NCBI RefSeq assembly: GCF_000151665.1
Contig: NW_013171816.1
Coordinates: 1,560,204 to 1,624,203, forward strand
DNA: 64,000 nt
Direction of reading: 5' to 3'
From: Blastocystis hominis
Lineage: Eukaryota > Sar > Bigyra > Opalinata > Blastocystidae
Under the pieces are notes generated by a model. The model ran no database searches, was not told the origin of the DNA, and was given only the letters and a program-made list of their open reading frames with translations. The translations under genes and the position numbers were made by a program. The stretch's first letter is position 1; each line of letters starts with the position of its first letter. Below are positions 1-64,000 of this stretch, piece by piece.

Positions 1-2245
1 GAGGCCTTCCTGAAGGACCAGTCGCAAAAGCAAGGCGCGACCTTCGTGCGTTACGACAAGGCGTCCGGCACCTGGGTGATTCGCGTGCCGCATTTCACTC
101 GCTACGGACTGGAGAGCTGGGACCTCGCTCGCGACTCCAGCCGAAAGCTGAGCCGTGAGACCAGTCGCGAGCAAATCGACGAAGCCCGCGCCAAGACCCC
201 GCACCTCTCGCAACCCGCGGTGAAATCAGCGAGCGAAACCGACCAGGAAGAAATCCAGCGCATTCTGAGCGAAGTCCTCGCCACTCCCTTGCCGTTTCCC
301 GAGGATTCCCGCGGGTTCTCCGCGGTTCTCGGGAAGAACTCGCTGCTATCCTCGGGTTTCTCGTGCATCCAAACCCGATCCCTGCCTCCGCCGCGTTCCA
401 CGTTTCTCCAGCGGCCGCTCCGCGCGCTCATCGACGCCTGCGCCTCCGTCGAGGGCTCGGAATTGCCCACCTCGGTCCCGCAGCTCTGCTGCCCGATGGG
501 GAAAGAGCTCTGCGAGTTCCTCCCTCGCCTCCAGGCCTCCTTCCAGTCCGCCGACCCCGCTCCTCCGATTCCCGCGGGTTCAGCGAGCTCCGCAACAGCG
601 GAGGTGGTGCGTCTCCCCGAAACCCCGTCGAATTCGATGGAATCGGAGTCGTCCTCGACGGACTGGGCTCTGGGCTCTCTCTACTACTCTCTGTTCTGGG
701 AGCTCTTCGCCCTGCTTTTCTTCTCCCCTTCTCCTGCCCAGCGATCCCGCTTCGACCGCTGGCTCGAGCGTCTACTCCGCAGTCCTCTCGGCTCCAGCGA
801 CGCGCCGCTGTTTGAGTCGCACGACGCCTTCGCGGTCGCTGCGCAGAACCTGCTTCGGCACGACGTTTGGGCCGCTTGCGAGGCGCTGCGAGCCGACCAA
901 TTGGAACGGCTCGCCGTGCAGGTCGCTCAGATCAGTTCGCTCTCTCGGATCGGCGTGACCTGTAGATTGCTCGGATGACTTTCGAACCACCATGTTGTAT
1001 CAGTTTCTGGATTGGCAGAAAAACGGACTTTTTTCGTCGATGACCGACTCGCAGATTTTTCTCATGTCGCTCTTGGCGGGGGACTGGAAGACCGCGAAGA
1101 GTTACGCGCTGACGTGGCCGCAGATCTTGGGAGTGTTTTACTGGTACGTGGAATCGCGGGAATGTCCGCTGGAGAAAGTTCTGGGAAATTTCCTGGAAGT
1201 GGTGGAAAATTCAAGGAAAATCGAGAGTGTTGCAGGGAGTGAAAATGGGAAAGAAGGAATAATTGAGCTGATGAAGCTGTTTGTGGCGATGAGGGAAGGG
1301 AAAGAGACATCGTTCATGTCGGTTTTGAATGAGCAGAGTAAATGATGGTTCATGGTGGAGATCGCATGTAGATTATTCGAAGAATTCGATGGAATACTTT
1401 AATCCGCTGTTACTCACTCAGTTCCTGTCTGCCTGTCCGATGCTCTTCGTTCCTCCAGACCTGCTTCCAAAACTCGTTTCACTACTCTCCGATCAGCTTG
1501 AATCGAGCGGAGAGTGGCAGCTCGCTTGCGCAGTGTGCATGTTTCATCCGTACGAACCGGTGCGCACGGAATTAGTTCGCTTGATCATTTCCCGCCATGT
1601 ACACGAACCGTTCAACACCTTTGACTTTCAAAATTTATCCGATTTCACGTCTTTTATCCAGAGCAGCCCTTCCTTCCAATTCTTATTCCACACGTTACAC
1701 ATCTCCTCCAATCTCGTGTTTACCGAACTTGTTCAATTTGCTCGCGCAAGCGACAACGTCAAACTCGAAATCATGTGTCAATTTGCTTTATCGAACTATT
1801 CACGAGCTTTCGATCTGCTCTTCCGTTACTACATCCAGCCAGAACTTATGGGTGAACGTCCTGACGACGTTGCAGCGAATCTGCAGCTATTTGAAGGGAA
1901 CGAAGAGAAAGTGCAGCGATGGGCGACATTAGGTTTGGTGGTAACGCAATATTTGGAATTCATGGGGGAGTCGGAAATTGTGACGTGTGACCGAGCGCTG
2001 GAGTTGCTCCAGCAAATCGAAGACATGAAAAAAGAGGAGGATTTGTTTTCTGGAAATGAGATGATTCGATTGACGCAGGAAATGAGCTATCAAGTACTAA
2101 ATAAAACAATAGAGAATCTTGGAAAGACAAAGCGAGATATTTCCGTTCTGGAAAAGGTTGGCATGAGAGTTAATGCTCTGGGAAACTATTACATGAAGAA
2201 GTCTCGTTTGCAAGCGTCTCTAGAGGAAATTTTAAGGTCTTGTTG
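1..2245 (+). CDS. NUP98: NUP98-NUP96 nucleoporin precursor, C-terminal part (5' end outside window)
   Basis: The frame is open from base 1. It starts in the autoproteolytic domain of NUP98: YDKASGTWVIRVPHFTRYGL is the conserved block that normally reads HFSKYGL and self-cleaves after HF. The NUP96 scaffold follows, an alpha-helical part of the Y-complex of the nuclear pore. I place introns at about 955-1003 and 1338-1371 (34 nt); both restore frame, and exon 2 starts FLDWQKNGLF. There is no in-frame stop where the helical domain runs out. The frame reaches TG at 2244-2245, then CAT, then TGTTTGTG (2249-2256), so polyadenylation would complete TGA. A genomic TGA is met only at 2274-2276. The first intron is less certain than the second. 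Confident in the family; the exact C-terminus is inference. Confidence 0.85.
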
Positions 2246-2248
2246 CAT

Positions 2249-2256
2249 TGTTTGTG
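2249..2256 (+). terminator. TGTTTGTG 3'-end motif of NUP98-96
   Basis: One-base variant of TGTTTGTT, three bases after an in-frame TG. It is read here as the downstream polyadenylation element that also sets the stop codon. Confidence 0.6.
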
Positions 2257-2382
2257 CAAAAACCTCTTGTGTTTGAGAAAAAAAATGTATCCATACAACC
2301 GCGGTTGTGGAAGGGCGTTTCGTTCAAAAGGTGGCAGATGAAGAATCGTAATCGTTGGCATATACATTCTATTTAATATTAA

Positions 2383-2886
2383 ATGATTCTCACTTTCCAG
2401 ACAAGCTTCCCTTCTGTCGATGAGGAAGACAGATATACGGATATTGATGTTCCTAAGACCCGTACCGTTGATGATGTACCTATATGCGCTTTTATCTTAA
2501 CGGTAGCTGTTTAAAGTGGTATGTGCCGAAACTGGAGTGTCCTTGACTTCTCCCATGGAACTTAAGATTAATGATGTTTTGTATAATCGTAACGATAAGC
2601 GAACCATTGAAGAGGCTGGTATTAGTTTGGCGTACCTTTGATCCTAGGTATTAACGAGTACGATATGGTTGAGGTTAAAATCTTAAAGAACGGCGGCAAG
2701 CAGATTCCTGGAAACGGTACGAATTTCCTCCTCATCTTATCAATAGTCACTGTAATGGATCTTTACAAGGCCCTTGGAACCCGTCTTGCGAATACGAATC
2801 TGGGCACTCTGGGTTTCCTCTCATCAATTTCTTCACTTGTAGAGCCTTCTTCCAAGCCCGTCGAGGAACCCAAGGCTCCCGAACCA

Positions 2887-2930
<44 letters not shown>

Positions 2931-3141
2931 TTCGACTCCCGCTGTTGCTCCTGCCCCTGTATCTGCTCCCGTTGCTCCCGTTGCTCCCGTTGCTCCCGTT
3001 GCTCCCACGGCCCCCGCGGCTCCCATTGCTCCGATCTCCGTCCCCAAGCCGAATGCATTCTCCATTAAGGCTCCGGCTGCCAAGGTCAACGCCTTCGCTG
3101 TGAAGGCGGGAGCTAATAAGTTTACGATTAAGAAACCTTAA
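2383..3141 (+). CDS. Ubiquitin-like-fold protein with Ala/Pro-rich tail
   Basis: Three short introns restore one frame: GTACCTATAT..CGGTAG (31 nt, ~2476), GTATTAGTTT..CCTAG (29 nt, ~2621) and GTACGAATTT..CAATAG (30 nt, ~2717). The N-terminal ~90 residues read like a ubiquitin fold: a first strand MILTFQTSF, TVDDLFKVVCAETGV, then DVLYNRNDKRTIEEAGI and MVEVKILKNGG, matching the order of ubiquitin's beta3-beta5 region. A low-complexity AP-repeat linker (about residues 125-185) and a basic end NAFSIKAPAAKVNAFAVK follow. There is no C-terminal GG, so it is a Ubl-domain protein rather than a conjugated modifier. It ends in a genomic TAA, with TGTTTGTT eight bases later. I recognise no named gene. 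Confidence 0.7.
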
Positions 3142-3174
3142 GTGAGGTTGTTTGTTGGAAAGGCACGGAGAAGT

Positions 3175-4386: not shown

Positions 4387-4489
4387 AAAGAAAAGATCGT
4401 TTGTGCGCTCGTTCGTTCGTTTGTTTGTTGGAAAGCAAAATTTGGAGGGAAAACTGGCGGCAGAATTTTCTTTCTTCTCACACGATACA

Positions 4490-5465
4490 ATGGATTTCCA
4501 AGGTATTCTGAGCGAATTTGCTGTGATAATGAATAGATACGAATAATTATGGATATGGAAATAATGCTTTCGGAGGAGAAGGGTATGGCCAGAATGGAGG
4601 CAACGGAATGTATGGAGGGGGAGCATACAATCCAAACCCAACATCTTATACTGGTACCGGTGGACCTATTTCTCCAAGTCATGTAATGAATCATCGAGTC
4701 GTGTAATCTAGCCTGCCGCGTCGCGACCCATCATTCCTATCGTTGTTTCCATGATCGGTCGTCTCATTTCCCATTCCGAGGGAAACTTCCAGTATTTTGA
4801 TTCTTCTATATCCACAGTGAGTTTAACGTGAAGCTGTGAGTCTAGATTTCCGTTTGCGGAATTATCTGCAATATAAAGCAAGGATCTTCGGAGCGGAAGT
4901 CCTTCACAATCCACGACGGCACAGGAGCAATCCAAGCGACCTTCTACGTGCAGAACGACAATCAGCAGTTTGCGTACAAGTTATCGTGTGTTTGTGAGTA
5001 GAACGGACGGCTACGTGCGAGTTATTGGAACGCTGCGCCAATTCCAGGACAAGGTGGAGATCAGCGGATATCATTGCGATCCGATAAGCAGTTTCAATGA
5101 AATAACGATCCACTATTTAAGTTGCATTCAGAGCTATTTATATTTCAAAAAACGATCGAATCCCGCATTGACCTCGACATCAAATGCAATGAACACATCA
5201 GACAGCGACGACTTGGAGACGAAAGTAGATCGATTGCTTTTGTTTTGATCGTGTTCAGATCTTGAAATACATTCGAATGAACCAACAGCAGAACGGATCG
5301 TCGACGTCCCAATTTGATTTGATGCAACGGTTCGAATCGGAGGGATACGACCGAAGCGCTGTGGAGTGGGAACTGTGCATGGAATCGAGTGTAGATTTGC
5401 ATTGAAAACGCTGACGGAGGAAATGAAGGTGTACATGCCTGAGCCTGATTCATATACTTGTGATT
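4490..5465 (+). CDS. RPA2: Replication protein A 32 kDa subunit (RPA2)
   Basis: Single-stranded-DNA binding subunit for replication and repair. The N-terminus is Gly/Asn/Tyr-rich, as in RPA2 (MDFQ, then YGYGNNAFGGEGYGQNGG). The OB fold follows: RPIIPIVVSMIGRL, KSFTIHDGTGAIQATFYV, GYVRVIGTLRQFQDKVEISG and FNEITIHYLSCIQSYLYF. A C-terminal winged helix follows (QILKYI, FDLMQRFESEGYDRSAVEFALKTL). Introns include 34 nt after residue 4, 29 nt before PAASRP and 29 nt inside the winged helix. No in-frame genomic stop occurs at the natural end. The frame runs to SYTCDF, where T (5465) lies four bases before TGTTTGTT (5470-5477). Without a poly(A)-made stop the frame stays open to about 5596. Confidence 0.85.
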
Positions 5466-5469
5466 TTTA

Positions 5470-5477
5470 TGTTTGTT
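5470..5477 (+). terminator. TGTTTGTT 3'-end motif of RPA2
   Basis: Exact motif at the point where the RPA2 winged helix ends and no genomic stop is present. Confidence 0.6.
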
Positions 5478-5578
5478 TGACAAGGGAGATGGATGAAAAA
5501 AGGATACTTGATCCGAATGTTTCAATCTTGCAAAGGATTGGCAATGAGACCAACAGTTGGTTTAATTCTAGTAATTGT

Positions 5579-5618
5579 CATGTCAATAATTCATAGTCCT
5601 TACTGTACTATTGACATG
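5579..5618. repeat. Perfect 10-bp inverted repeat (CATGTCAATA, 20-nt loop)
   Basis: CATGTCAATA at 5579-5588 is answered by TATTGACATG at 5609-5618 in the ~245-bp gap between the convergent RPA2 and Cys-rich finger genes. No other feature is seen in the gap except the minus-strand motif near 5680. It could be a transcript hairpin or chance. Confidence 0.4.
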
Positions 5619-5710
5619 CTACAAACACACCGTGTTGCCTCCTTTGCAACCACAACTCCCTCCAACTCCTGTTTCAAACAAACAAAATCCTAAATGAAGA
5701 AGCATAGAGT

Positions 5711-8115: not shown

Positions 8116-8202
8116 TTCCCTTACAAAACTCCAATAGAATACAGAAAGAAGACAACAAAGAATGAATCAAAGAAAATAACTATTTCTATTATTATTATTG
8201 TA

Positions 8203-9111
8203 ATGAGTATCGGATTATCGCAAGAAGATATTGATCTGGTTCGTTCCTACGTAACAGCCAGAGATGGTCATGAGTATGACTATGTTGAAGATGGCGTGGT
8301 CTGCTTCGATATCACTCATAATTACCTCAAAGTGCGCATGCACAGTGTACACATGCCGATCACATCCACAGTATGTTTTCGGGACGAGTGGACGAATTCA
8401 CCAAGTAGGTGTTCGAATTGAAAAGAAAGATTACCACGCATTCCGGAACCCCTCCAGAGTTCCAGCGCTTAGAACTTCAGTCTTCTTCTGGAATGAAAGT
8501 CGGAGTGGTTGACTGCTGCTGACAAGTAGATAGTGGATCTGCTAAACAACGATGCAACTTTACAATCATATGGTTTTCAAAACGGAATGGTCGTTCATTG
8601 CACAGATTTTGTCAGCATTGCCTATTTTTGTTAACTGTAGAATCCAAATTCTCTAGCCAAGGATGGAGGACTGGATGACGTGTCAAAAGTAAAGAAATAT
8701 ACTATGAGCGACGAGGAATACAACAAACTCCAAAACACCTATCGAGCCTACAAAAAGCGCGTGGGCGAAAATGTACTTTTTCCTCCTCATCGATTCACTC
8801 TAGTTCGATGCAAATAAGCAATATGGAGCCGATTCCGTTGCCCATGTCAAAGTGGACAGTCGATGTGAAGTGTCTCCAGGAGGTCGTCGAGGCACGGTGC
8901 GTTGGATTGGAGTCTTAGAAGAGGGCAGTACGACACGCGGCGGATACTGGGTCGGAGTTGCGTTGGATGAGCCAACAGGAAGGAATGACGGCAGTTTTAA
9001 TGGAACCAGATTGTTTGAGTGTGGAGCGAATTATGGAGTGTTTGTAAGGGGAGAAAATGTACAAATCGGTGATTTTCCGGAGGAAGAACTTGACTTGGAT
9101 GAGGAGTTTTG
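8203..9111 (+). CDS. TBCB: Tubulin-folding cofactor B (CAP-Gly protein)
   Basis: Captures alpha-tubulin after CCT and works with cofactor E. The N-terminal ubiquitin-like part is split by short introns. The middle reads VKKYTMSDEEYNKL, like the linker of TBCB. The CAP-Gly domain reads SRCEVSPGGRRGTVRWIG, GGYWVGVALDEPTGRNDG and FECGANYGVFVRGENV, followed by IGDFPEEELDLDEEF. TBCB proteins end with an acidic DE-rich tail at this point. Here no genomic stop follows: the frame reaches TG (9110-9111), then TAC, then TTTTTGTT (9115-9122), so the poly(A) tail would give TGA. The next gene starts only ~20 bp downstream. 5' exon junctions (8340-8850) were not all resolved. Confidence 0.82.
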
Positions 9112-9131
9112 TACTTTTTGTTTCACACACT

Positions 9132-9832
9132 ATGTTCCTGTTGGATCTGTATGATAGCTATCTCCAAGTTCCTTTTTGCAGAGTATTTGATTGTAGAGCT
9201 ATCCAATTCCTACGAAATGCATCACTTCCATGATTCTTGTCAGCATAAGCGATATCATTTCTCAAGTCATTACAAAGAGTTGATTTCAATTGTAAAATTT
9301 GAAATAGATAAGAAAAACCGAATTGCGCGAAATATCCGCTTTATGATCTGGGGTTTATTCTTCGGGGTTGTCGCTCATGGATATCTGGTGTTGATGAATA
9401 CCCTATTCCCTTCGCGCGCATTTTTCTACATTATCGTGAAGGTTGTTATCGATCAAGTTCGACCATTTAGCACTTTATTTACTGTAGTGTATATGGGCTC
9501 CTTTTTCCAATGTCTTGTTTTTCTTCTTCATTTCAGCTTTGGAAGTAATGTTTCTTGGAATCGGAATGAGTTGCAGGACCCGTGGAATCAGCCGCATGCA
9601 GGAATACTGAGTATTCGACAAAACCTTGTACCAACAATGAAAATGAACTACATTGTTTGGTTACCCGTCCAGGCGATTAATTTTCTTTTGGTTCCGTTGA
9701 ACGTCTGAGTTGCTTTGGAATTTCATGCATAGTATCAATTAATCGTGATGAACGTGGTTTCTCTCTTCTGGAACACATACTTGTCGACTGTGGCCAATCG
9801 TTCTGTGCGTTATAGTGTCATCAATGAGGTGT
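9132..9832 (+). CDS. Mpv17/PMP22-family membrane protein, copy 1
   Basis: Four-helix protein of mitochondrial inner or peroxisomal membranes. Spliced reading: MFLLDLYPIPTKCITSMI and SISDIISQ, ARNIRFMIWGLFFGVVAHG, FFYIIVKVVIDQCIWAPFSN, FISALE, DPWNQPHAG, NYIVWLPVQAINFLLVPLN, YQLIVMNVVSLFWNTYLS. These are the family signatures (W.P.Q.INF..VP, LFWN.YLS). Introns are 31, 32 and 30 nt plus two of about 45-50 nt. There is no in-frame stop between the end of the family domain and the glycosyltransferase ATG at 9898: both share one open frame. I propose T (9832) + AA four bases before TGATTGTT (9837-9844). The end is inference. Confidence 0.75.
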
Positions 9833-9897
9833 TAAGTGATTGTTCAAAAAACAATGAAACATGGAGAGAGATTATTTTCTTAGAAACAAGAGATACA

Positions 9898-11442
9898 ATG
9901 AGAAGTGTTGTTTTTTTCCTGTATGCTATTGTAATATTCGTGTCTTGCTTCATTATTGTATCGCTGAATAGGCTACCCAATGATTTTGGAAAGGTAGCTC
10001 TACCGGTCGGGTTTGTTGATTACAGTGATTCTGCTACTCAGAAAGCGTCATTTCCGCAGACAAAAACGCTAAGGCGAGATTCTCCCAGTGCTCCCTTCCT
10101 TGGGGATCAGACAGAGCAGATTCCTAGAATACCTAAATCAGAAGAAGCGAAAATCATACCGCCGGCTTTTACACAAGTGAAGGAGGAGAAAAAGGTTGTT
10201 CCTACACAGAAAGTTCAAAAGAGTATACCAGTAGTTCGTAATGGGGAGAAGGATTCATATGTCATAAATCCACAGAGCTTATTGCATAAGGTCATTCATT
10301 ATGAACCCTTTGTAATTCCGCCCCCAATTCGTACACGGAGTATGAAGTTTAGTCCTCTGCAAGATTTCTCGGAGTATTACAAGTTTCTGAAAGCTGCTTC
10401 CAACCGTTGTGACTTGGATATCTGCAAAAGACCTTTAAAGTACTTGAATCAGTTTTCTTCGTGGGATTGCCGCAAGTTCCCTTCTCTCTGTTCTGACCCC
10501 TCTGCCTTTTTGATAATGCAAGAGCCGAAGTATTTGGAGGGAAGAGTCGATATCATTGAAAACGGAGTAGTATCGCATAACTTGGATTGTGGCTGGCCGG
10601 CAGACCACACGAAGAGCGAGAATCAATTCGATAGTCGATTGGTGGGCCATTTCCAAGGAACGTTGGTCCCTATGGTGGTTCCTGAAGGATTAAGTTTCCA
10701 ACACTTTGTAGACGGCGTTCTTCCAAAGCTTGTCATCCTAGTGGATATTCTACGGAAAGAGCCATCCTATACGATGGCCATGGATATGAGAATCGTCAAG
10801 GGCATGCCGAAGCAGTTGTTGGAACGAATGGGATTGCTCAGTGGTACGATTACTTCCTGGGATTCCCTTCCTTGGAAGAACGGGCAGCTCTACGCAGATA
10901 AGCTGATTATGGGATGCAAGGTTCCTCCACTGCATCCCGAATTGTGGCAGAAGGCGCAAGATCTGTTCGATCTGCCGTGGAAGAAAGAGGGCTGGAAACA
11001 GAAACGACACATTATGCTGTATTTGTCGAGAAAGCAAGGAACGAGTAATCCAGGACGAGATGTCGTTAACGAGAACGCATTGCTGAAAGAACTCGAGCAA
11101 TGGGCGAGTGAAAAGGGATTCGAGTTGGTGGTGTTTACGGCATCGGACTACAAAACACTCGACGATCTGTTCATGTTGTTGGCAGATGTGGATGTGGTGC
11201 TTGGGCCGCATGGAGGCGCGTTTTATAACATGCTGTTCATGAGGAGAGGGATTACAGTGATCGAGTTTGTGCCAGACTCGCGCATGTTTTTAAGTACGGC
11301 TCAGGCTGTGCATCTGATCATCTATCTTCAGGCTTCGCTTTTGGGGAATAATTACTTTAATATTCGCGCAGCTGACAAGGGGCATTCGAACATGTACATC
11401 AACCCTTCCCTGGTCCTCGAGATATTGAATTCTGCTTTCTAA
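9898..11442 (+). CDS. GT61-type (DUF563) glycosyltransferase, type II membrane protein
   Basis: Intronless. Start chosen at 9898 because MRSVVFFLYAIVIFVSCFII is a typical signal anchor, although the frame is open further upstream into the Mpv17 gene. A stem of ~100 residues is followed by the catalytic domain: CGWPADHTKSENQFDSRLVG, HFVDGVLPKLVIL, LSRKQGTSNPGRDVVNEN and DVDVVLGPHGGAFYNMLF, then GITVIEFVPD. The GPHGGA..N block with IEF downstream is typical of GT61 (EOGT and plant xylosyltransferases). Expected to act in ER/Golgi on glycoproteins. Sugar and acceptor cannot be told. TAA at 11440-11442. Confidence 0.78.
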   Translation: MRSVVFFLYAIVIFVSCFIIVSLNRLPNDFGKVALPVGFVDYSDSATQKASFPQTKTLRRDSPSAPFLGDQTEQIPRIPKSEEAKIIPPAFTQVKEEKKVVPTQKVQKSIPVVRNGEKDSYVINPQSLLHKVIHYEPFVIPPPIRTRSMKFSPLQDFSEYYKFLKAASNRCDLDICKRPLKYLNQFSSWDCRKFPSLCSDPSAFLIMQEPKYLEGRVDIIENGVVSHNLDCGWPADHTKSENQFDSRLVGHFQGTLVPMVVPEGLSFQHFVDGVLPKLVILVDILRKEPSYTMAMDMRIVKGMPKQLLERMGLLSGTITSWDSLPWKNGQLYADKLIMGCKVPPLHPELWQKAQDLFDLPWKKEGWKQKRHIMLYLSRKQGTSNPGRDVVNENALLKELEQWASEKGFELVVFTASDYKTLDDLFMLLADVDVVLGPHGGAFYNMLFMRRGITVIEFVPDSRMFLSTAQAVHLIIYLQASLLGNNYFNIRAADKGHSNMYINPSLVLEILNSAF

Positions 11443-11593
11443 GAATCGATTTCCACCGTTCGCTCTTCGAAAGATATCTCCCGCAACTGTAGCTCTTTCA
11501 TTTCAAACTTTATATCCTTTTTGTTCAACAAACACACCGAGCGAGAAGTGAGTAGAAACAGCTCCCAGTCGAAACTGGTAGTAACTCCATTTC

Positions 11594-34524: not shown

Positions 34525-34539
34525 TGTTTGTTACAAACA
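34525..34539. terminator. Back-to-back bidirectional 3'-end element TGTTTGTTACAAACA
   Basis: TGTTTGTT on plus (34525-34532) and TGTTTGTA on minus (34539-34532) share one base, so one 15-bp near-palindrome serves NHP2 (+) and the Mpv17-family gene (-). Confidence 0.65.
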
Positions 34540-38165: not shown

Positions 38166-38173
38166 AACAAACA
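38166..38173 (-). terminator. TGTTTGTT 3'-end motif of the FYVE-like gene
   Basis: Exact motif three bases after an in-frame TA. The PLAA start codon follows within ~20 bp. Confidence 0.65.
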
Positions 38174-38176
38174 GCA

Positions 38177-39261
38177 TAGTTTTTACCCGTATTTCTCTTA
38201 TTAAACTCATTAATTCTGCACAGCAACGAATAACATTTACAACAGAATCGCTACCCATCATCCATCCTCTCCAGTCCCACCTTATTCTCCCCTAACGACC
38301 GCACCGACAGCGTGGATCCGCAGCACTTATTGCAGAACACGTCTCCGCACAGTCTGCAATGACTACCCCTCACATCATTTAGCCGCGCCTACTGTCTCCG
38401 ATAGAACGACCCAAACGTCTTTCCGCACAGCGTACACGCTCCGCTCTCCCCATCACGCTTCCACGGCTTCGTCCGCACGCCCTCCACCGCCACGGACCGG
38501 AGAAACTCGAGGTCCTCGACGGCCAGCGCGCAGAGAAACGCCTCCATCGACGCGGGCGTTTCGCAGAGCGGCGCGAGCACGTGGATGGCCTCGGCGAACT
38601 GCTCGGCGACGAACTGGCCGTGAGAGAAGGGCTCGAGAAGCGATTCGCCGGCGGGCACGGCCTCGGAGATGACGGAGACGGCGTCGGAAGGGTCCTCGGA
38701 GGGGTCGTCGAGGAGAGGCGAGGGAATGGAGGCGTGCAGATGGGCCAGTTTGGAGCGGGCGAGCGACTGCTTGAGCGAGGAGAGCTGCTCATTGCGATGG
38801 CGGAGTTGCGCGTGGAGAGACTCGCAGTGCGCGCAGGGAGGCAGCTCGGTGGATTGGTCGTTGACGAAGTCGGTGAGCGCGGAGTAGACGCTCTCGCGGA
38901 GAGATTGCAGGCGATCGGGGAGATCGCCCAGAACACTGGGGGTGGAGGGGGAGCGGAGAGGCCAGGGCTCTTTTCCGTACCTAGAGTTCAGCGGAGAGTG
39001 CAGCTGTACTTATTCACGAGCCGCTGGTAGAGTTGATCTTCCTCTCCCTTGTAACTCTCTAAGATGGATCTGACCTGGGTGTCAGTGGATGGATCTACAT
39101 CTACGGAATTCACTTTCTCAGGATTCACGGATTGATAATACGTAGTTAACACCTCTTCTAAGTTTTCGGGCACAATAAACGTGGATTTTCTAACAGATCA
39201 ATTTATGGATCGGTGCTGATTACGTTGGATCGGGTGAGCCGGAAGCTGGAGAACTCTGCAT
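38177..39261 (-). CDS. Coiled-coil protein with C-terminal FYVE-like finger
   Basis: Start MQSSPASGSPDPT. A 34-nt intron leads to STFIVPENLEEVLTTYYQSV, ILESYKGEEDQLYQRLVNK. A 29-nt intron leads to YGKEPWPLRSPSTPSVLGDL, a coiled-coil (CESLHAQLRHRNEQLSSLKQ) and a finger: KPWKRDGESGACTLCGKTFG, then a 30-nt intron and HHCRLCGDVFCNKCCGS. The WxxD-like, CxxC, RHHCRLCG and CxxC features are FYVE, but the final Cys pair (normally RVCxxC) is missing. No genomic stop: after a 39-nt intron the frame reads INEFNKRNTGKN and then TA (38178-38177), TGC, TGTTTGTT (38173-38166), so poly(A) makes TAA. PLAA begins ~20 bp further. Confidence 0.65.
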
Positions 39262-44195: not shown

Positions 44196-44213
44196 TGTTT
44201 GTTCTATCAAACA
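44196..44213. terminator. Back-to-back 3'-end motifs shared by HAD-like (+) and CHMP4 (-) genes
   Basis: TGTTTGTT on plus (44196-44203) and TGTTTGAT on minus (44213-44206), two bases apart. Confidence 0.6.
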
Positions 44214-44216
44214 CTA

Positions 44217-45016
44217 CACAAATTTTCTAGCATAGCTTCTAAATCATCATCTTCAGTTTTGACTTCTCCTGTTTTAACCGTAGAAGGAACACTAGGAAGA
44301 GCAGTCTCAGGTACATTTGGTAACGCTGTTTTCTGTTCTTGGTCCCTGGCTATATCCTTGTCCAACTCCTCCATCAGGTCGTCAACATCAGGATCTTCAG
44401 GAGTTTCGGTAAGTATATCCATCATGTCTTTCACATTTGCAACTTTTTCATTAATGTCTTCCATCAGATCTTGAAGTTTTTCCACGGAATCACTACAATG
44501 AATATAACTAGGCAACAACTACGCATAGGCAGATTCAAGAGCTTTCTTGGTAGTCTCCATCACAGTAACCATTTCATTGATAAATTGCATATCATCTACC
44601 GTACCTAGAGTTGATTGTTGTTGTAGCAGAATATTCTATTTTCATGATCTCAATATTTATAATAATACATTGTACTGAGTAATTCGTTCTCGGCACTTCT
44701 TGACCTTCATCAACTCTTGCTTGATGGCTATACATATTAATTTTGGCTATACAAAGTACCGGGATCCTCCGGATTCTTTGCTTTAAGCGCCTTCGCACGA
44801 GCAAAAGCTTCGTCTTGATCCTTTTGGTTTTTGTCAATCCTAAATAAGAAACTAGCACAAGGACTACTTCTTTTGCAAGCTGTCCATAGTTTCCCTAATC
44901 TTCATCATAGCCTCAGTAGCCTTAAGATCCGATTCTTCCCTCTGCCGTTCCTGAGTCACTTCAGGAGCCTCTGATTGGCTATTCGACTTAGAGTTACCGA
45001 AAAATCTCTTGAACAT
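44217..45016 (-). CDS. CHMP4: ESCRT-III subunit Snf7/CHMP4
   Basis: Polymer-forming ESCRT-III protein for membrane scission. ATG 45016: MFKRFFGNSKSNSQSEAPEV. Introns (one of 28 nt before IDKNQKDQDEAFARAKAL) split the helical core, which continues FINEMVTVMETTKKALESAY, SVEKLQDLMEDINEKVANVK and PEDPDVDDLMEELDKDI. The acidic C-terminal helix DDDLEAMLENL is typical of Snf7. The frame then has TG (44218-44217), TAG, TGTTTGAT, so polyadenylation would complete TGA right after ENL. A genomic TGA follows three codons later, inside the motif. The CHMP4 call rests on overall pattern; CHMP6/CHMP5 are alternatives. Confidence 0.75.
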
Positions 45017-53400: not shown

Positions 53401-54142
53401 CCAGAATCCGCCAGTTGGCCGCCGATCTGTTATTTGGGTTGGATCGTAGCACGTCGTTGATTCAGATGGTCGCTGGATTGGTTCCGGCCGAGCATCAAAA
53501 CTCATCATCGGCTTCCATGCCGGAATTGACGAAATGTTTGGTCGGTGCGATCAAACTCTCCGCATTGCGACCGACTCTTCTGCGAGGATTGATCTATACA
53601 GTGGGCGGAAACTCGCCGAGAGAAACGAAATCGATGTCGAAAGAGCTGATTGAGGTGATCAGCGATGAATCCACGGCGAAGGCCGTGTTTCCAGAGCTTG
53701 TAGTCATTCTCAAAGAAGAAGCCTCTGCCCATCGAAATGGGTTTTACCCGGCGCTCCGAACGCTGATTCTGTGCTGCGAGTCGGTTGACTTGGCGACGGT
53801 TTTGGATCCCAAATTGCAGGGCGAGTTGTATCAGTTGATTCCGAAACTGGCCATTTGGCAAACCAAGAACCAAAACACGGCGGTTGTGAAGTCGCTGCTC
53901 GATCTTTATGCATTGATGCTGCCTCTCTGGACCCCTGAGAGAAACGTTCTCGCTCCAGCACTTCCGTTTTTAGAATATCCGAACGCAATGATTCGGAACG
54001 AAGCGGCGCAAGTGCTGTACATGCATTGTGCCATGAATGGAATCGAGCCAGAAGCGCAGACGATTCTGGAAAGCGGATCGTTTGGCTCTGCGAACTTCAA
54101 AGAGTCGGTGGCCGCTCTACGATCCTTGTGTTCATTTTCGTG
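50471..54142 (+). CDS. TBCD: Tubulin-folding cofactor D
   Basis: HEAT-repeat chaperone that takes beta-tubulin from cofactor A and joins cofactors C and E. Start MSVNHIVSEDGSTCYDIKYN, with many short introns up to ~52,260 and then a long exon. Diagnostic blocks: VADGVCYLFWACVREYTAVL, RRASAAVMQEFVGRLGNENV DHGLDLM, ILPKVAAVSKYRPNIVDRLK, and CADYTREIRGDVGSWTRSAT (family RGDVGxWxR). Length ~1,150 aa fits. There is no genomic stop at the end: the frame gives SLCSFS, then TG (54141-54142), TTC, TGTTTGTG (54146-54153), so poly(A) completes TGA. Its partner TBCB is at 8.2 kb. Confidence 0.85.
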
Positions 54143-54145
54143 TTC

Positions 54146-54162
54146 TGTTTGTGTAACAAACA
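54146..54162. terminator. Back-to-back 3'-end motifs shared by TBCD (+) and the CELF-like gene (-)
   Basis: TGTTTGTG on plus (54146-54153), then one base, then TGTTTGTT on minus (54162-54155). Confidence 0.65.
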
Positions 54163-54168
54163 ATCCCG

Positions 54169-57359: not shown

Positions 57360-57387
57360 ATTGTTTGTTGATAATCATGACGAAAAA

Positions 57388-57519: not shown

Positions 57520-59443
57520 ATGTCTGGTACTTATGGTACACGAGTGGCACATAAAAAGGGTACCTTGCGTGATACACTCCACAAGAGAGCAGAAGCAACG
57601 TTGACACGGTATTGCTTGCGTTTGAAGGCCTGATGTTTATAGGGAAGGCATATTTAATGCTGTTGTCTGTCCGGAGGGCGTAGACCGTAACGAGTGGATT
57701 GCAGTCCATGGTATGCATTTTCCTTGTGCTTTGCTAAATCGCAGCTGTTGACTTTTACAACGACATCTGTATGCTGTTCGGCATCGTAGCAGATAATTGT
57801 ACAGCAGAGAAATGTCCCAATATGTCAGCTGGGTCGAAGTTGTTTCTGTGCTGCCCTGCTATTCTTTAGATTCGAATATCTGTGGTTGGATCAAGAACAT
57901 TACCGTCGACCTACCCGATTTCCTGCAAAGATTTACATCGACTACCTGTTGAACTGGCTCGTAAGCCAGCTAGATAACCCCAACATTTTCCCAGTAGACG
58001 ATAGTAGGCGATGTGTGGCATTTCTCTCGTAGACACTCCTTTTCCCCCAAATTACGATGACTACGTAAAGGTTTTTTTCCGTCGTATTTTTCGCGTCTAT
58101 GGGCACATCTGGCACAACCACCGAGATTTTTTGAAGCTTTGCAAATGCGAGGACTTTTTTAGATTCAGTCTAACTCACTACTTGTACTTTGTGGACCACT
58201 TTAATCTCGTCGATGGGAAGGAAATCCGCCCTCTCTACCAACTCGTCAACGAAATCGCCCCCAATCTCCCTCGTACGCCTCTCTTTTTCTTTCTCTCTCT
58301 CTTAGTCACCAAGGCCATGAACGTTATCGAGGAGTCCAAGCAGGAGAGTCGAAAAGCCCAGCAGCTCGCCTATCAGCAGCAGCTCGCTCCCGTCAATCGC
58401 CAGCTCCACAACGGCCGGCCTCCCATCAATCTCCACCAGCGCCCCAGCTCCTACTGGATGTCCGATCGCTCCTCCACCGAGTTCCGTTCCTCCTTATGCT
58501 ACAACGAGAGCGGCGAGGAGCCTTCCGTCACCGATGAGGCCGCTTCCGAGCCGCTGCCGCACAGTCCCGCGCGCTACCCCGCGCTGGTGCTTCGCTCCGT
58601 CCCTCCGGAGGTCGTCAATCGCTCCTCCCAGAGCGGCAGCGTCCCCGCGGGAGTGCCTCAGCAGGCGGAGAGCCAGGCGAAGCCGCCGGGGGCGAGTCTG
58701 TCGGCCTCGGTGCAGTCGGCGCAGTCGATGCAGTCGAAGGCGTCCATTTCGCCGGTTTCTCCGGCGCCCAGTCCGGCGATGGCGAGTCGTCCAGTGAGTC
58801 TGGGGCAGCCGATGCGGGCGTTACCGCCAGCGCAGCAGGGCGGGCAGGGCGCCCAGCGCGTGCAGATGGTGCCGCGCCCCGCGGGGCAGCAGCCGATTTA
58901 CCAGTACATGCAGCAACAGCAGCAGCAACAGTCGCAGCCGGGCGTGCCGCCGTCTCCGCAGCGCTTCGCCCAGCAGCCAGCTGCCCAGCAAGCCGTGCCT
59001 CCATCCCCACAGTATTATGTGCAACAACCCATTCAACACTCTATTCAACAACAACAACAACAATCTACTCATCAATCTATTCAACAACAATCTACTCATC
59101 AACAACCCATTCAACAACAGCCCGTTCAGTCTTCTCCTCAGCGTTATGTTCAACAGCCTGTGCAACAGCCTGTGCAACAGCCTGTACAGTATTATATGCA
59201 GCAGCCTGTGCAGCAGCCAGCCGGGCAAGTGGGTCAACCAATCCAGTATGGTCAGTCAATGCAGACTGCACAAGGAACTGTTTTGCAGCCGAATCAGCCC
59301 ACTCAATCGTATAATCTTATGAACAAGGGAGTGGCTCCGTCGTATGGAGCGGCTCAGAGTGATGAGCCGAACGAAGAAGCAGAGGAAAACGCAGAAAGGG
59401 AGAGCGAAGAGGAGGAAGGGGATGAAAAGTGTATCATCTATTG
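57520..59443 (+). CDS. MOB-family kinase activator with long Pro/Gln-rich C-terminal tail
   Basis: Co-activator of NDR/LATS-type kinases. MSGTYGTRVAHKKGTLRDTL HKRAEATLT is joined by ~34-nt introns to EGIFNAVVCPEGVDRNEWIA VH, AVDFYNDICMLFGIVADNCT AEKCPNMSAG, FEYLWLDQEHYRRPTRFPA, YIDYLLNWL, then TPFPPNYDDYVKVFFRRIFR VYGHIWHNH. Zinc ligands C-x4-C and HxxxH are present. After the MOB fold, an extra ~400 residues are disordered and rich in Q, P, S (QSIQQQSTHQQPIQQQPVQ), ending EEEGDEKCIIY. Stop made by polyadenylation: TG (59442-59443), GCG, TGTTTGTT (59447-59454). The genomic frame continues to 59501. MOB1 and MOB3 end without such a tail. Confidence 0.83.
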
Positions 59444-59446
59444 GCG

Positions 59447-59454
59447 TGTTTGTT
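59447..59454 (+). terminator. TGTTTGTT 3'-end motif of the MOB gene
   Basis: Exact motif three bases after an in-frame TG. Confidence 0.65.
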
Positions 59455-59685
59455 TGATACCGTGGAGATGGAGCGCTTCTAGCGTTACTAGGGTGCTGTA
59501 ACATTTCGTAGAGTCAATGAAAGAGTGCTATTTCCCCCACAAACGTGCAATTCACTCTCTTTCCACACTCACCTCACAATAACCACGAGATAATATACTC
59601 CCCAGTACATATTCTATAAATAAAAATTGATTGTCTCCACAATACGCTTCCTTTATTCACAATTGGATTGACTCAAAACTCCCAA

Positions 59686-60684
59686 ATGAGCAGACCAGAG
59701 AGAGAAGGACCTCCCGATGTATTGCAACAGATTTTATAATTAAGAATAGCTGTTCTACAACGAACAGGAAGCAAAGAAATACGCCAACAACAGTCGTATT
59801 CGGTTAATTCAGGCGCAGCTATCCGATCGTGCCATTGATTTATTGGTATTACCAGAGGGTGAGCCTGCACTGTTATTGGACATTGGTTGTGGAAGTGGTT
59901 TGAGTGGAGAATGCATCTCCAATAGAGGTCATCATTGGATTGGTTGTGATATTAGTCCTTCCATGTTGGACATTGCCATTTCCGTTTGATTTCGTTTGTT
60001 TCTTAATGAAATAGAATGGAGTTGAAGGAGATATAATGAAACAAGATATGGGTCAAGGTCTTCCCTTCCGCTCTGGCATTTTCGATGGTGCCATCAGTAT
60101 TTCTGCCGTTCAATGGTTGTGCTACTCAAACTCGAAAGGAGAGAACCCTGTGTACATGTTTTCTTGTGTAATAATTGATAGTCGCCGTTTAACTGCTTTC
60201 TTTATGTCACTGTATAATTGCCTCCGTTCTGGAGCGAGGTTTGCTTTTACTATTTTGTTCTTTCTCTCTAGAGCTGTCATTCAATTATACCCGGAAACTC
60301 CCGAGCAAATGGAGTTGATATCGAAAACGGCTACGAAATGTGGCTTTTCTGGAGGATTGGTCGTGGATTTCCCGAACAGTGCCAAGGCAAAGAAGATGTA
60401 TTTAGTGCTGAAGGCAGGAAACGACCCGAACTTTGTGGTTCCGAAAGGTTTGAGCGACGAGAACGGGGAAGAAGCGACGGATATTCGGTTTACAGCGCGT
60501 GAGAAAGCGCTGCGTCGTCGTCATCGTGGTCGCGAGTTCGCTCCGATAAAGAGCAAGTAGAGATTGCGAGTGGAAGCGATTGTAGAGAGTGGATCATGAA
60601 GAAGAAGGAGAAGCAGCAAGCTATGGGACGAAGAACGGCGAGAGATTCGAAATACACGGGAAGAAAGAGACCAACTCCTTTTTA
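59686..60684 (+). CDS. BUD23: 18S rRNA (guanine-N7) methyltransferase BUD23
   Basis: SAM-dependent enzyme that methylates 18S rRNA with Trm112. MSRPEREGPPDVF matches the BUD23 start. Further blocks: AKKYANNSRIRLIQAQLSDR-like region, LLLDIGCGSGLSGE (SAM motif I), WIGCDISPSMLDIAI, GDIMKQDMGQGLPFRSGIFD GAISISAVQWLC, AVIQLYPETPEQMELISKTA, GFSGGLVVDFPNSAKAKKMY. A 29-nt intron at ~60,556 leads to the basic tail ...KYTGRKRPTPF. Family members end TGRKRxxRF, so the protein must stop here, yet no genomic stop exists: TA (60683-60684), TTG, TCTTTGTA (60688-60695) gives TAA by polyadenylation. About five introns. Confidence 0.9.
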
Positions 60685-60687
60685 TTG

Positions 60688-60702
60688 TCTTTGTAACAAA
60701 CA
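60688..60702. terminator. Back-to-back 3'-end element TCTTTGTAACAAACA shared by BUD23 (+) and the metallothionein-like gene (-)
   Basis: TCTTTGTA on plus (60688-60695) and TGTTTGTT on minus (60702-60695) share one base. Both flanking genes need poly(A) to complete their stop codons. Confidence 0.7.
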
Positions 60703-60705
60703 GAA

Positions 60706-61409
60706 CACAAACTTGTTACCAGAGTTTCAGTGGGCTCCGAACCACAGCCTCCTTTGCCTCCATGGCAGCCTCCATGGCAGCCTCCCTTGCCTTTACAGCC
60801 GCCTTCTCCTCCACAGCAGCCGCCTTCTCCTCCATGACAGCCGCCTTTACAGCCCCCATTGCCTCCGTGGCAGCCGCCTTCTCCCTCTCCATGGCACTTG
60901 CACTCGCCCTTTCCCTTTCCTTCTCCACAGCAACCTCCATTGCCTCCGTGGCAACCTCCATTGCCTCCATGGCAACAACCTCCTTCTCCCTCTCCTTCTC
61001 CATGGCATTTACATTCGCCCTTGCCCTTTCCTTTACAACCACCTTCTCCCTTTCCCTTTCCTTCTCCACAACAGCCACCATTGCCTCCATGGCAGCAACC
61101 TCCTTCTTCTCCCTTGCACCCTCCTTTGCCTTTACAACCACCTTCTCCCTCTCCATGGCATTTGCATTCGCCCTTTCCTTTTCCTTTTCCTTCGCCACAG
61201 CAACCTCCTTCTCCACCATGGCAACAACCTCCTTCTCCTCCCTTGCATCCGCCATTTCCTCCATGGCAACAACCACCTTCCTTGCCTTCTCCTCCATGAC
61301 AGCCACACTGGCCATCCTTTCCACAAGCCTTCATCTCTCCCTCGTTTATTTTATTCTTCTTCTTGTTCTTGTCGACGATGTACGTTCCGTAGGCTGCCGT
61401 AAGTGCCAT
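60706..61409 (-). CDS. Metallothionein-like Cys/Gly repeat protein
   Basis: About 234 residues. A short N-terminus MALTAAYGTYIVDKNKKKNK is followed by ~190 residues made only of short modules of Cys, Gly, His, Lys, Glu: CCHGGNGGC, CCGEGKGKGE, CKCHGEGEGG, GCKGKGGCK. Cys comes as CC, CxC and CxxxC pairs with adjacent His, suiting a metal-binding protein. It is far longer than classical metallothioneins (25-80 aa). It ends GGCGSEPTETLVTSL, with stop TG (60707-60706), TTC, TGTTTGTT, so TGA is completed by poly(A). Low complexity also gives long spurious ORFs in other frames. A metal-storage role is inference. Confidence 0.65.
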
Positions 61410-61448
61410 TCGGAGCGGAGAACTACACCTTACACCGCACAACCTTCA

Positions 61449-62037
61449 CTACGTTAGCTTGTTCGTAGCGTAGGCTAAAGTCAAAAGGCTCGCCTATCAT
61501 CAAGTATCACTAACACAAGTACATTAGGATTGTTTGCAATGAGATGCGAAAAACGGGCAGTGATTTCATACTTATTCATCAGCGCAACAATAGCGTCGGG
61601 AGTAACTAACCCAGCTTTAAAAGCACCATAAATTCCGAGGAAAAAAGCAGCTTCTCTACAATAATACAGAAAAGATGAAACAACAGTCCAAAATAAGCAA
61701 TAACAACCTTGGTTCCCCCCATTTTATTGAACTTATGTCCAAAGTTGATTAACTGGCGCTTTTCCTGCTCTATTTTTTCCATGCGCCTCTCTTTCTTCTG
61801 CAACTTCTCTTCCTCGGTCTCTGTTGCATCTAAACATCAGTACAACGAAAAGTAAATACAGCAACGAAAAAACACTGTATTACTGAATGAGCGTGATCGG
61901 AGCGGTAACGAATGGAAAGGCTCAGTTATTCTATTACCTAAAGTCTTCATCAGCAACAGAGTCTGAGAAGAGTTGATACTCCGACGAATAATGTCTCGTA
62001 CCACCATTGGCCTTCCAAAAGATAGAACTAGCGACAT
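61449..62037 (-). CDS. DUF1279/FAM210-like membrane protein
   Basis: ATG 62037: MSLVLSFGRPMVVRDIIRRS INSSQTLLLMKTL, a possible mitochondrial presequence. After introns comes a coiled stretch (EEEKLQKKERRMEKIEQEKR QLINFGHKFNKMG), then GTKVVIAYFGL, a 29-nt intron, EAAFFLGIYGAFKAGLVTPD AIVALMNKY, and after another 29-nt intron ASLLTLAYATNKLT, TAG. Two hydrophobic segments and a final LTLAYATNK-like end fit the DUF1279 pattern (normally before the coiled coil). The first intron boundaries (61,830-61,940) are unresolved. The divergent start is ~180 bp from PRORP. Assignment is moderate. Confidence 0.5.
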
Positions 62038-62215
62038 TTTCGAAAGAATTAGTGATTTTATGTAAACAAAGAATCACACTTTATGATGATGTTGTTTTGA
62101 ACGAATACTACTCTCTTTTGATGCACACTACTAGTACGGAACAGGAATCAATTTACTTTTGCTTTGTTGCCTCGATTCTTTTTGTGTTTGGTACTTGTTT
62201 AAACACTTATGAGAG

Positions 62216-63844
62216 ATGGACAAGCAATCCAAAGGGGCATATCGCAAGAAATTGCTGGAGAACATACAGAGTGGTAATATTAATGAACTCACAAGTGAAA
62301 TAACGAATTTACTACAGTCTGAAATTATTGAATGGTATTGTTAACTTGATTTCATCAACTTCAGGGATCTTGTTACTTTGGTTCTCTCTATGATTCCAAA
62401 AATGGAGAATTCGAGTCGCTTATTTGATACGTGCGTTTCTTTGTTGAATGGGCGTCAAGATATCCCAGAGAATACTTGTTCGTCCATTCTAACAGACTAC
62501 GCACATTTTGAAAGAGTAGACGATGCTTTGGGAATGCTTGAAACGATGAAACAGAATGGAATCGAACTCAGGTGGAAGTCACTAGTATGCTTTTTATTTT
62601 TTAGAAATCGCCATGTCTCTCCATTGATCGATTTAGCAAACAAGAAAAAGGACATACAGATTATGGAGCACATCGACCTGATTCTCTCCCAGTCATCACT
62701 CAAAGTCAATCAATCCGTCCGTTCCAAAGAATTGTTATTTTGTTTTTTTGCTCTTAGTTTTTCGTGATTTGTATAGATTCTCAAACAAATAATATCGATC
62801 GAATCATAGAAACTCTTCGCAAAATAGCTCGAGAAGAGGACTTTATTCACGAACCTTCCGTCATCCAAGCTCTTCAGAAGTTCTGTGTTTTGTACTGATT
62901 TCAAACACTTTCCACGCAGAAATCCATCATGGAGTTGCTCTCCCATGCAAATCAAAGGCGCATCTTGTTCCCATTGCCACGAACAGCTTCAAAAGTACCA
63001 TCTCACGAACGATCAACGGGATTTGTTGCTTCTTGGTATCGAAGCCATGACACGTTTGCTTATTTTTTCTCTCTCTTTAACTCTAAGAAACATCACAAAA
63101 CCGTTCTCAAGCCTTTCAACAATTCAAAAAAGCAGTCGATTCCTTTGACTACGACGTAGTCATCGATGGAGCCAACGTCGGCTTCTCCACCTCCAATCGT
63201 CGCGAAGCGTCCCAAACTCCCTTTTCTCTTCGCGTAAACGACATCCAAACAGCTGTCGATTCTTTTCTCGACCAACACAAACGTCCCTTAGTAATTCTCC
63301 ACAATTATCACATTCGACACTTAAAACGATTCCAACCGCAGCAGCTCGCCGTTCTCGACGTTTTCTCTCCATCAAACTCCATCACTTTTAGCAGCTCCAA
63401 GCGAATCGAATGTTGTACTATGTGCAACAGGGATCAAACGATGACTGGTATTGGCTATACGCTTCGCTGCGTCGTCCGAATTGCTTCGTGAGTAAGCGAA
63501 GTCCAGTTGATTTGTAGCTGCTGTCGAACGATCAGATGCGGGACCATTTGTTCCAGGCGGAGCATGAGGAGCAGCTGCTGAGGAAATATAGAGAGGAAAC
63601 ACAGATTACGTACCGGTTTGTTTTGAATGCCGAGAAAAAACAAAAGTTGAAATTGTACTTTCCAAAACCATACTCCACTTGCATTCAGGTAGATTTTCGA
63701 AAGGATTGTCAGAAATAGGAGTTTCGTAACGGGTTTCACCTCCCTGTGGGAAAAATGGAACTGTCGACTGTTCATGTGGATCGATGGTTCTGTTTCCTAA
63801 ACAAAATGGCAAGTCTGTCACAGTTTGCGAGACGTATCCATTAG
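62216..63844 (+). CDS. PRORP: Protein-only RNase P (PRORP)
   Basis: Cleaves the 5' leader of pre-tRNA without RNA. Start MDKQSKGAYRKKLLENIQSG. The PPR region includes DLVTLVLSMIPKMENSSRLF and HFERVDDALGMLETMKQNGI ELR. The central structural zinc site begins CSHCHEQLQKYHLTNDQRDL. The NYN nuclease follows: DYDVVIDGANVGFST, RPLVILHNYHIRHL, then VQQGSNDDWYWLYASLR, LSNDQMRDHLFQ, which hold the metal-binding Asp residues (GSNDDWYWLYA and NDxMRDHLF are diagnostic). The C-terminal part FRNGFHLPVGKMELSTVHVD RWFCF completes the zinc site. Introns ~30 nt (e.g. GTATTGTTAA..CTTCAG, GTAGATTTTC..AAATAG). TAG at 63842-63844, then TTTGTTTGAAAC. Confidence 0.88.
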
Positions 63845-63972
63845 CAGGAGAAAAGTTTGCTAGTTTGCTAGTTTGTTTGAAACATTGTTCACATTTTTCT
63901 TTGTACTGCATAACTCCTGGGAAAAAGACTGAATAATCATCTCAAAACTGTGTAATCACGTTCGGTAGCGTA

Positions 63973-64000
63973 ATGAACCTGAATAACCCGTTTGATCTGA
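63973..64000 (+). CDS. Possible start of next gene (partial)
   Basis: ATG at 63973 reads MNLNNPFDL and is open to the window edge. It lies ~100 bp past the PRORP 3' motif, the normal spacing here. No more can be said. Confidence 0.25.

What the first reader, a model, noticed from the sequence alone, without database searches (positions are those of the whole stretch)
1..64000. Stop codons completed by the poly(A) tail with a fixed 3-nt spacing to TGTTTGTT
In at least eight genes the coding frame ends in TG or TA exactly three bases before a TGTTTGTT-like motif, where the protein family says the protein ends: NUP98-96 (TG-CAT), TBCB (TG-TAC), FYVE-like (TA-TGC), CHMP4 (TG-TAG), TBCD (TG-TTC), MOB (TG-GCG), BUD23 (TA-TTG), metallothionein-like (TG-TTC). 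RPA2 and Mpv17 copy 1 fit as T + AA with four bases. The phenomenon is known for Blastocystis. What the window adds is a set of well-anchored cases and an apparently strict cleavage distance.
Basis: partly seen in the sequence, partly recalled or inferred. Interest (0 to 1): 0.85.

Follow-up and report, generated by a model that had tools for sequence, protein, structure and literature searches.

The report
Blastocystis stop codons made by poly(A)
In this gut microbe some genes lack the end of their stop codon, and the poly(A) tail added to the RNA supplies it; this is real but was published for this same organism in 2014, including the fixed spacing, which is four bases rather than the three proposed here.

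Summary
The genome is Blastocystis subtype 7 (ST7): a published 29-nt ST7 primer matches it exactly. All eight listed sites, plus RPA2 and Mpv17, are present, and TGTTTGTT is over-represented: 25 copies against 2.4 expected. Polyadenylation-made stop codons, this signal and its fixed distance were published for ST7 in 2014: 372 of 2,419 genes, motif exactly four nucleotides downstream in 2,333 of 2,419 (PMC4159000, main text read).

In 10 of 10 sites the open codon starts with T five bases before the motif; the next base is G6, A2, T2. Cleavage after that T, four bases upstream, gives UAA in 10 of 10. The three-base rule works in 8 of 10 and would need six UGA stops; the published ratio is 13 UGA to 359 UAA. 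TG is a cleavage-site preference.

BUD23 is an excellent anchor (281 residues, gapless against a Blastocystis relative); Mpv17 shares one open frame with the next gene. The metallothionein-like case is frame-ambiguous; CHMP4, NUP98-96, TBCD, MOB and FYVE are weakly anchored. Minor extra: convergent genes share palindromic dual signals.

The parts
2244..2256 (+). NUP98-96 3' end: open codon TGC, last templated T at 2244, spacer GCAT, motif TGTTTGTG 2249-2256
   Evidence: Nup96 PF12110 at residues 116-380 of the 555-aa model; next genomic stop 10 codons on, so weakly anchored
5465..5477 (+). RPA2 3' end: open codon TTT, T at 5465, spacer TTTA, motif TGTTTGTT 5470-5477
   Evidence: OB-fold domain; deposited Blastocystis hominis model P0124 instead runs into what I read as the last intron
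9110..9122 (+). TBCB 3' end: open codon TGT, T at 9110, spacer GTAC, motif TTTTTGTT 9115-9122
   Evidence: CAP-Gly PF01302; four TBCB-like solved chains align up to query residue 114-120 of 125
9832..9844 (+). Mpv17 3' end: open codon TTA, T at 9832, spacer TAAG, motif TGATTGTT 9837-9844
   Evidence: PF04117 at residues 154-202 of the 217-aa model; the same frame then stays open 536 codons into a GT61 glycosyltransferase gene
9898..11442 (+). GT61 glycosyltransferase gene in the same open frame as Mpv17, separated from it only by the inferred poly(A)-made stop
38166..38178 (-). FYVE-domain gene 3' end: open codon TAT, T at 38178, spacer ATGC, motif TGTTTGTT 38173-38166
   Evidence: FYVE PF01363 at residues 14-74 of an 88-aa piece; not recovered by the codon-usage model
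44206..44218 (-). CHMP4 3' end: open codon TGT, T at 44218, spacer GTAG, motif TGTTTGAT 44213-44206
   Evidence: Snf7 23.7 bits on a partial model, under the curated cut-off of 27.3; genomic stop only 3 codons on
54141..54153 (+). TBCD 3' end: open codon TGT, T at 54141, spacer GTTC, motif TGTTTGTG 54146-54153
   Evidence: TFCD_C PF12612 at residues 637-770 of 893
59442..59454 (+). MOB-family gene 3' end: open codon TGG, T at 59442, spacer GGCG, motif TGTTTGTT 59447-59454
   Evidence: Mob1_phocein PF03637 far upstream
60683..60695 (+). BUD23 3' end: open codon TAT, T at 60683, spacer ATTG, motif TCTTTGTA 60688-60695
   Evidence: 281-aa product, five introns of 29-33 nt, ends on the same residue as relatives
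60695..60707 (-). Metallothionein-like gene 3' end: open codon TGT, T at 60707, spacer GTTC, motif TGTTTGTT 60702-60695 (frame ambiguous)
60688..60702 (.). Dual convergent signal shared by BUD23 (+) and the metallothionein-like gene (-)
54146..54162 (.). Dual convergent signal: TBCD (+) and a gene on the minus strand
44196..44213 (.). Dual convergent signal: plus-strand motif and CHMP4 (-)
34525..34539 (.). Dual convergent signal TGTTTGTTACAAACA
11518..11534 (.). Dual convergent signal downstream of the GT61 gene (+) and facing a minus-strand gene

Best explanation
These are ordinary 3' ends of Blastocystis ST7 nuclear genes. The pre-mRNA carries a GU-rich downstream element (UGUUUGUU). The 3'-end machinery, perhaps through the short CstF-64-like protein proposed in print, cleaves four nucleotides upstream of it, most often after a U. 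Poly(A) addition then turns a codon of which only the first U remains into UAA. The element, its distance and the stop-making are shown by EST mapping in print for ST7; their use at these ten window sites is inferred from sequence.
For: Organism: exact ST7 primer match. Published ST7 EST mapping: 372 of 2,419 genes with tail-made stops, 359 UAA and 13 UGA, motif exactly four nt downstream in 2,333 of 2,419 (PMC4159000). Another EST study: four bases between attachment base and motif, U favoured at the attachment base, G 35% and A 30% at the next (PMC4360255). Mutating the motif and two upstream Ts cut reporter expression 324-fold (PMC6395660). Window: T at -5 in 10 of 10 sites. Genome: T at -5 in 4,298 of 7,304 motif copies; among these -4 is G 1,573, A 320, C 484 and, by subtraction, T 1,921, so A, which would make UAA under a three-base rule, is the rarest. 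Backward controls: G 161, A 514, C 182. Base-blind codon-usage test on 264 kb: sites where coding runs open and stops at the motif had T first in 17 of 21 in the phase starting at -5, against 9 of 28 in the other two phases; of 11 with T and no genomic stop, -4 was G6, C3, T2. BUD23 aligns 281 of 281 residues without gaps to Blastocystis sp. Blastoise and ends on the same Phe; an unnamed EukProt sequence and a hamster one end on Phe too. Mpv17 and GT61 share one frame.
Against: No RNA reads were available, so no cleavage site was seen. The base-blind test recovered only 4 of the 9 window cases open to it (59447, 54146, 9115, 44213); NUP98-96, RPA2, Mpv17, FYVE and MT were not recovered and BUD23 (two mismatches) was not examined. 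Those 4 are among the 11; several others rest on one-mismatch motifs. T is enriched at -5 in motif copies generally, so 17 of 21 overstates the case. Stops from TA or TG at -6,-5 plus A, which the mechanism also allows, were not seen: 0 of 6. In print about 4% of sites have a weaker motif and/or a spacing of three or five (PMC4159000), so a single three-base case cannot be excluded. The transfection paper puts the likely legumain poly(A) T 3 or 5 nt upstream of the motif (PMC6395660). MT may use a genomic TAA.
Confidence: 0.94

Rival explanations
1. One reading: cleavage three bases upstream of the motif, so that TG or TA plus one A gives UGA or UAA.
Against: RPA2 and Mpv17 have T at -4 and cannot work this way. 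Outside the window 5 of 7 base-blind candidates have C or T at -4. It would need 6 UGA of 10, against 13 of 372 published (binomial 3e-7). G at -4 is common genome-wide: 1,573 of 4,298, and A there is depleted (320, against 514 in the backward control). Published mapping says four.
Confidence: 0.03
2. Some listed genes simply end at a genomic stop: transcripts run past the motif-like sequence, or the gene uses another frame or intron.
For: CHMP4 and NUP98-96 would gain only 3 and 10 residues; the metallothionein-like gene has an overlapping frame ending in a genomic TAA; the deposited RPA2 model ends at a genomic TGA inside what I read as the last intron region.
Against: Very unlikely for BUD23 (239 codons of read-through) and Mpv17 (536 codons into another gene); the motif is the mapped ST7 poly(A) signal in print.
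Confidence: 0.15
3. Coincidence of motif and open frame.
For: Chance motifs inside coding regions exist, e.g. the exact copies at 52000 and 53280 inside the TBCD coding region.
Against: 25 exact motifs against 2.42 expected; T at -5 in 10 of 10; residue-exact end of BUD23.
Confidence: 0.01

Closest known systems
Polyadenylation-created termination codons in Blastocystis (Klimes et al. 2014, PMC4159000; Gentekaki et al. 2017, PMC5608401)
   Same: Same subtype (ST7), same motif, same mechanism, same four-nucleotide distance, same UAA product.
   Different: Nothing in kind. The window adds example genes; I did not see these genes named in the text that I read (main text of the first, passages of the second), and no supplements could be read.
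Blastocystis poly(A) site survey (PMC4360255)
   Same: Motif position and U/G preference at the cleavage point.
   Different: It is not about stop codons; it notes only occasional UTR-less mRNAs (passages and one section seen).
Mitochondrial mRNAs of animals whose UAA is completed by polyadenylation
   Same: T or TA plus tail gives UAA.
   Different: Organellar, set by tRNA punctuation rather than by a downstream GU element (recalled, apart from the mention in PMC4159000).
Coding-region polyadenylation of a mammalian tRNA synthetase (PAY*)
   Same: Tail A's convert a sense codon to UAA.
   Different: Alternative and truncating, not constitutive (as described in PMC4159000).

Membership tests
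Blastocystis polyadenylation-created termination codons | Blastocystis nuclear gene | tested here: met
   29-nt ST7 legumain 3' UTR primer sequence matches G000 exactly, 1 place; the best-scoring BUD23 relative is Blastocystis sp. Blastoise; the Blastocystis hominis RPA2 entry is 99% identical over 82% of the query
Blastocystis polyadenylation-created termination codons | No genomic stop in frame before the poly(A) site | tested here: met
   10 of 10 in the frame chosen; for the metallothionein-like gene the frame itself is uncertain
Blastocystis polyadenylation-created termination codons | TGTTTGTT with at most two substitutions | tested here: met
   10 of 10, with 0, 1 or 2 mismatches
Blastocystis polyadenylation-created termination codons | Motif four nt downstream of the last templated base, giving mostly UAA | tested here: met
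   By codon logic only: 10 of 10 at four bases, 8 of 10 at three; not observed in RNA
Blastocystis polyadenylation-created termination codons | Untemplated A's directly after the incomplete codon in mRNA | not testable with these tools
   no RNA reads available
Blastocystis polyadenylation-created termination codons | CstF-64-like RNA-binding candidate present (hypothesis of the 2014 paper) | tested here: inconclusive
   CSTF2 hinge domain hit just over its cut-off (28.8 against 27 bits) at G000:C1:100012-100170, plus one under it; binding to the motif is only a hypothesis in print

The most novel reading that the evidence does not exclude
Convergent gene pairs in this genome share one palindromic dual poly(A) signal (TGTTTGTTACAAACA and abutting forms), so that a single 15-18 bp element ends both genes, each mRNA being cut four bases outside it, and several of these ends also make the stop codon. 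In the window BUD23 and the metallothionein-like gene, TBCD and its neighbour, and CHMP4 and its neighbour are arranged so. I found no mention of it in what I saw of the Blastocystis papers.
Probability: 0.7. Interest if true: 0.3.

Novelty: already known. Interest (0 to 1): 0.15.

Why it matters
It matters mostly for annotation: standard gene finders run such genes past their true ends. The deposited RPA2 model (P0124) looks like such an error, and Mpv17 with its downstream glycosyltransferase could be predicted as a fusion. The four-base T+AA rule, rather than the three-base rule, is the one to use when re-annotating ends. The biology itself has been in print since 2014.

Tried and rejected
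The three-base TG/TA+A rule was tested and rejected. A plain open-frame-length test of phase was too weak because introns cut the frames, so a splicing-aware codon-usage model was used; its starts and introns for long genes are rough, and its RPA2, FYVE and MOB models ran into neighbouring genes. RPA2's C-terminal domain was not found among solved structures: only two repeat-protein hits, E 0.064 and 0.99. The 84-residue piece given as protein 6 matched nothing. CFIm25 (NUDIX_2) was not found in the genome, but that search is exon by exon, so this is weak. A plasmid search gave no match; in viral contigs 5 stretches matched a pattern but none encoded a BUD23 relative. The backward control of the plain TGTTTGTT count (5,456) is unreliable, since the backward word is another phase of (TGTT)n arrays; the shuffle control is used instead.
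Full report
What the window is. The window lies at G000:C2:1560204-1624203 of an 18.7-Mb, 40-contig assembly. A 29-base sequence printed as an ST7 primer for the legumain 3' UTR (PMC6395660, passages seen) matches that genome exactly, at one place, and the deposited Blastocystis hominis RPA2 entry P0124 is 99% identical to the window's RPA2 over 82% of the query. The window is therefore Blastocystis subtype 7, the subtype in which polyadenylation-created stop codons were described.

Is the pattern there? Yes. TGTTTGTT occurs 25 times on the two strands, against 2.42 expected from dinucleotide shuffles (0 of 100 reach 25). For all ten the frame is open through the site; the next genomic stops lie 10 (NUP98-96), 43 (RPA2), 14 (TBCB), 536 (Mpv17), 142 (FYVE), 3 (CHMP4), 32 (TBCD), 19 (MOB), 239 (BUD23) and 28 (metallothionein-like) codons further on.

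Three or four bases? The open codon always starts with T at position -5 relative to the motif (10 of 10); position -4 is G six times, A twice and T twice. Cutting after the T leaves a four-base spacer and gives T+AA = UAA in 10 of 10. Cutting after -4 gives a stop in only 8 of 10, six of them UGA. The two rules end the protein at the same residue, so protein families cannot separate them, but other evidence does. In print, ST7 EST mapping puts the motif exactly four nucleotides downstream in 2,333 of 2,419 genes, the rest having a weaker motif and/or a spacing of three or five, and counts 359 UAA against 13 UGA (PMC4159000, main text read). A second EST study states that the tail-attachment base and the motif are separated by four bases, with U favoured at the attachment base and G 35%, A 30% at the next (PMC4360255, passages and one section seen). 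In that paper's terms the first tail position and the motif are three bases apart, which may be how the two counts come to differ by one. Against this, the transfection paper places the likely poly(A) T of one gene (legumain) 3 or 5 nt upstream of the motif (PMC6395660).

Genome-wide sequence counts agree with four. There are 7,304 copies of TGTTTGTT; 4,298 have T at -5 (backward control 1,948). Among these, -4 is G in 1,573, A in 320 and C in 484 (backward controls 161, 514 and 182), leaving T in 1,921, a number inflated by (TGTT)n arrays. In 105 non-tandem copies of the 264-kb sample (13 tandem copies set aside), the counts were TG 26, TT 20, TC 8 and TA 4.

A test that does not look at the bases. 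On the window plus 20 stretches of 10 kb, a splicing-aware codon-usage model asked, for motif copies with up to one mismatch (at most 599), whether coding runs open to the site and in which phase. It made 72 such calls, 49 of them terminal. Among these, T stood first in 17 of 21 in the phase that starts at -5, against 1 of 6 and 8 of 22 in the other two phases (Fisher p = 0.0012). T is enriched at -5 in motif copies generally, so this overstates the case somewhat. Six of the 17 carry a full genomic stop there. The other 11 have G6, C3 and T2 at -4; the seven outside the window have G2, C3 and T2, so five of seven contradict the three-base rule. Some rest on one-mismatch motifs and may be chance. 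The test recovered 4 of the 9 window cases open to it (MOB, TBCD, TBCB, CHMP4) and missed NUP98-96, RPA2, Mpv17, FYVE and the metallothionein-like gene; BUD23, with two mismatches, was not examined. Stops made from TA or TG at -6,-5, which the mechanism also allows, were not seen (0 of 6).

How good are the anchors? BUD23 is excellent: its 281-residue product, read through five introns of 29-33 nt, aligns without gaps over 281 of 281 residues with the Blastocystis sp. Blastoise protein (65% identical, both ending in Phe) and over residues 3-279 with a 281-residue solved BUD23 chain; an unnamed EukProt sequence and a hamster one also end in Phe. Mpv17 is the most telling: the family domain ends at residue 202 of 217, and the frame then runs on without any genomic stop into a GT61 glycosyltransferase with a possible start ATG at 9898. 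TBCB ends 5 to 11 residues after the point where four TBCB-like solved chains stop aligning; those chain ends may be construct ends. RPA2 is supported by contrast: the deposited model reads through the 29-nt last intron (5366-5394) and ends at a TGA at 5403, the kind of error described in PMC4159000 and PMC5608401 (passages seen of the latter). A relative (P0125, 48% identical) ends ...SSIVC, as expected if a gene caller read through a codon starting with T and then GTT TGT; its DNA was not seen, so this is inference. CHMP4, NUP98-96, TBCD, MOB and FYVE are plausible but not fixed by their families. The metallothionein-like gene should not be counted as well anchored.

Mechanism. The published hypothesis is that a short CstF-64-like protein binds UGUUUGUU (PMC4159000). 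A CSTF2 hinge-domain hit just over its cut-off exists in the genome. No CFIm25 (NUDIX_2) match was found, which would suit the reported lack of an upstream element, but the search is weak for intron-rich genes. The role of the motif in expression is supported in print by mutation of the motif together with two upstream Ts (324-fold loss, PMC6395660).

What may be new, and small. Convergent genes often share a palindromic dual signal. TGTTTGTTACAAACA occurs 50 times against 0 for the backward control; TGTTTGTT-N0-20-AACAAACA matches 73 times per strand against 3, a few of these being overlapping matches within tandem arrays (listing capped). In the 264-kb sample, close convergent pairs (4-20 bases apart, one copy exact) number 6, divergent 0 and reversed control 0; at 21-40 bases the numbers are 1, 2 and 1. 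In the window nine places fit with up to two mismatches in all, five of which I count as clear; that both flanking genes use each of them is inference. The motif also extends: TGTTTGTTTGA occurs 563 times against 66 backward. I found neither point in what I saw of the Blastocystis papers, but the library is open-access only, listings were capped, and no supplements could be read.

Verdict.

Noticed in passing
11518-11534, 34525-34539, 44196-44213, 54146-54162, 60688-60702: Overlapping or abutting poly(A) signals on both strands, forming short palindromes between convergent genes; enriched genome-wide (50 vs 0 and 73 vs 3 against backward controls).
   Followed up: partly
5470, 59447 (+); 5684, 35372, 38173 (-): The motif is often followed by TGA (TGTTTGTTTGA): 563 genome-wide against 66 for the backward pattern; A at the third base after the motif is 57% of 117 sample copies.
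   Followed up: partly
9151-11442: Mpv17 and a GT61 glycosyltransferase lie in one continuous frame after Mpv17's only intron in my model, and could be predicted as a fusion by ordinary gene finders.
   Followed up: yes
5366-5405: The deposited Blastocystis hominis RPA2 protein (P0124) seems mis-ended: it reads through a 29-nt putative last intron to a TGA at 5403.
   Followed up: yes
60621-61445 (-): Low-complexity gene with two long overlapping frames: a Cys/Gly-rich metallothionein-like one and a Glu/Lys/Ala-rich one ending in a genomic TAA 9 nt before the poly(A) site; which is translated is unclear.
   Followed up: partly
54155-54162 (-), 11527-11534 (-): Two neighbouring genes with complete genomic stops have 3' UTRs of about 2 and 55 nt by the codon-usage model (the first only 1.1 bits ahead of its runner-up).
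   Followed up: no
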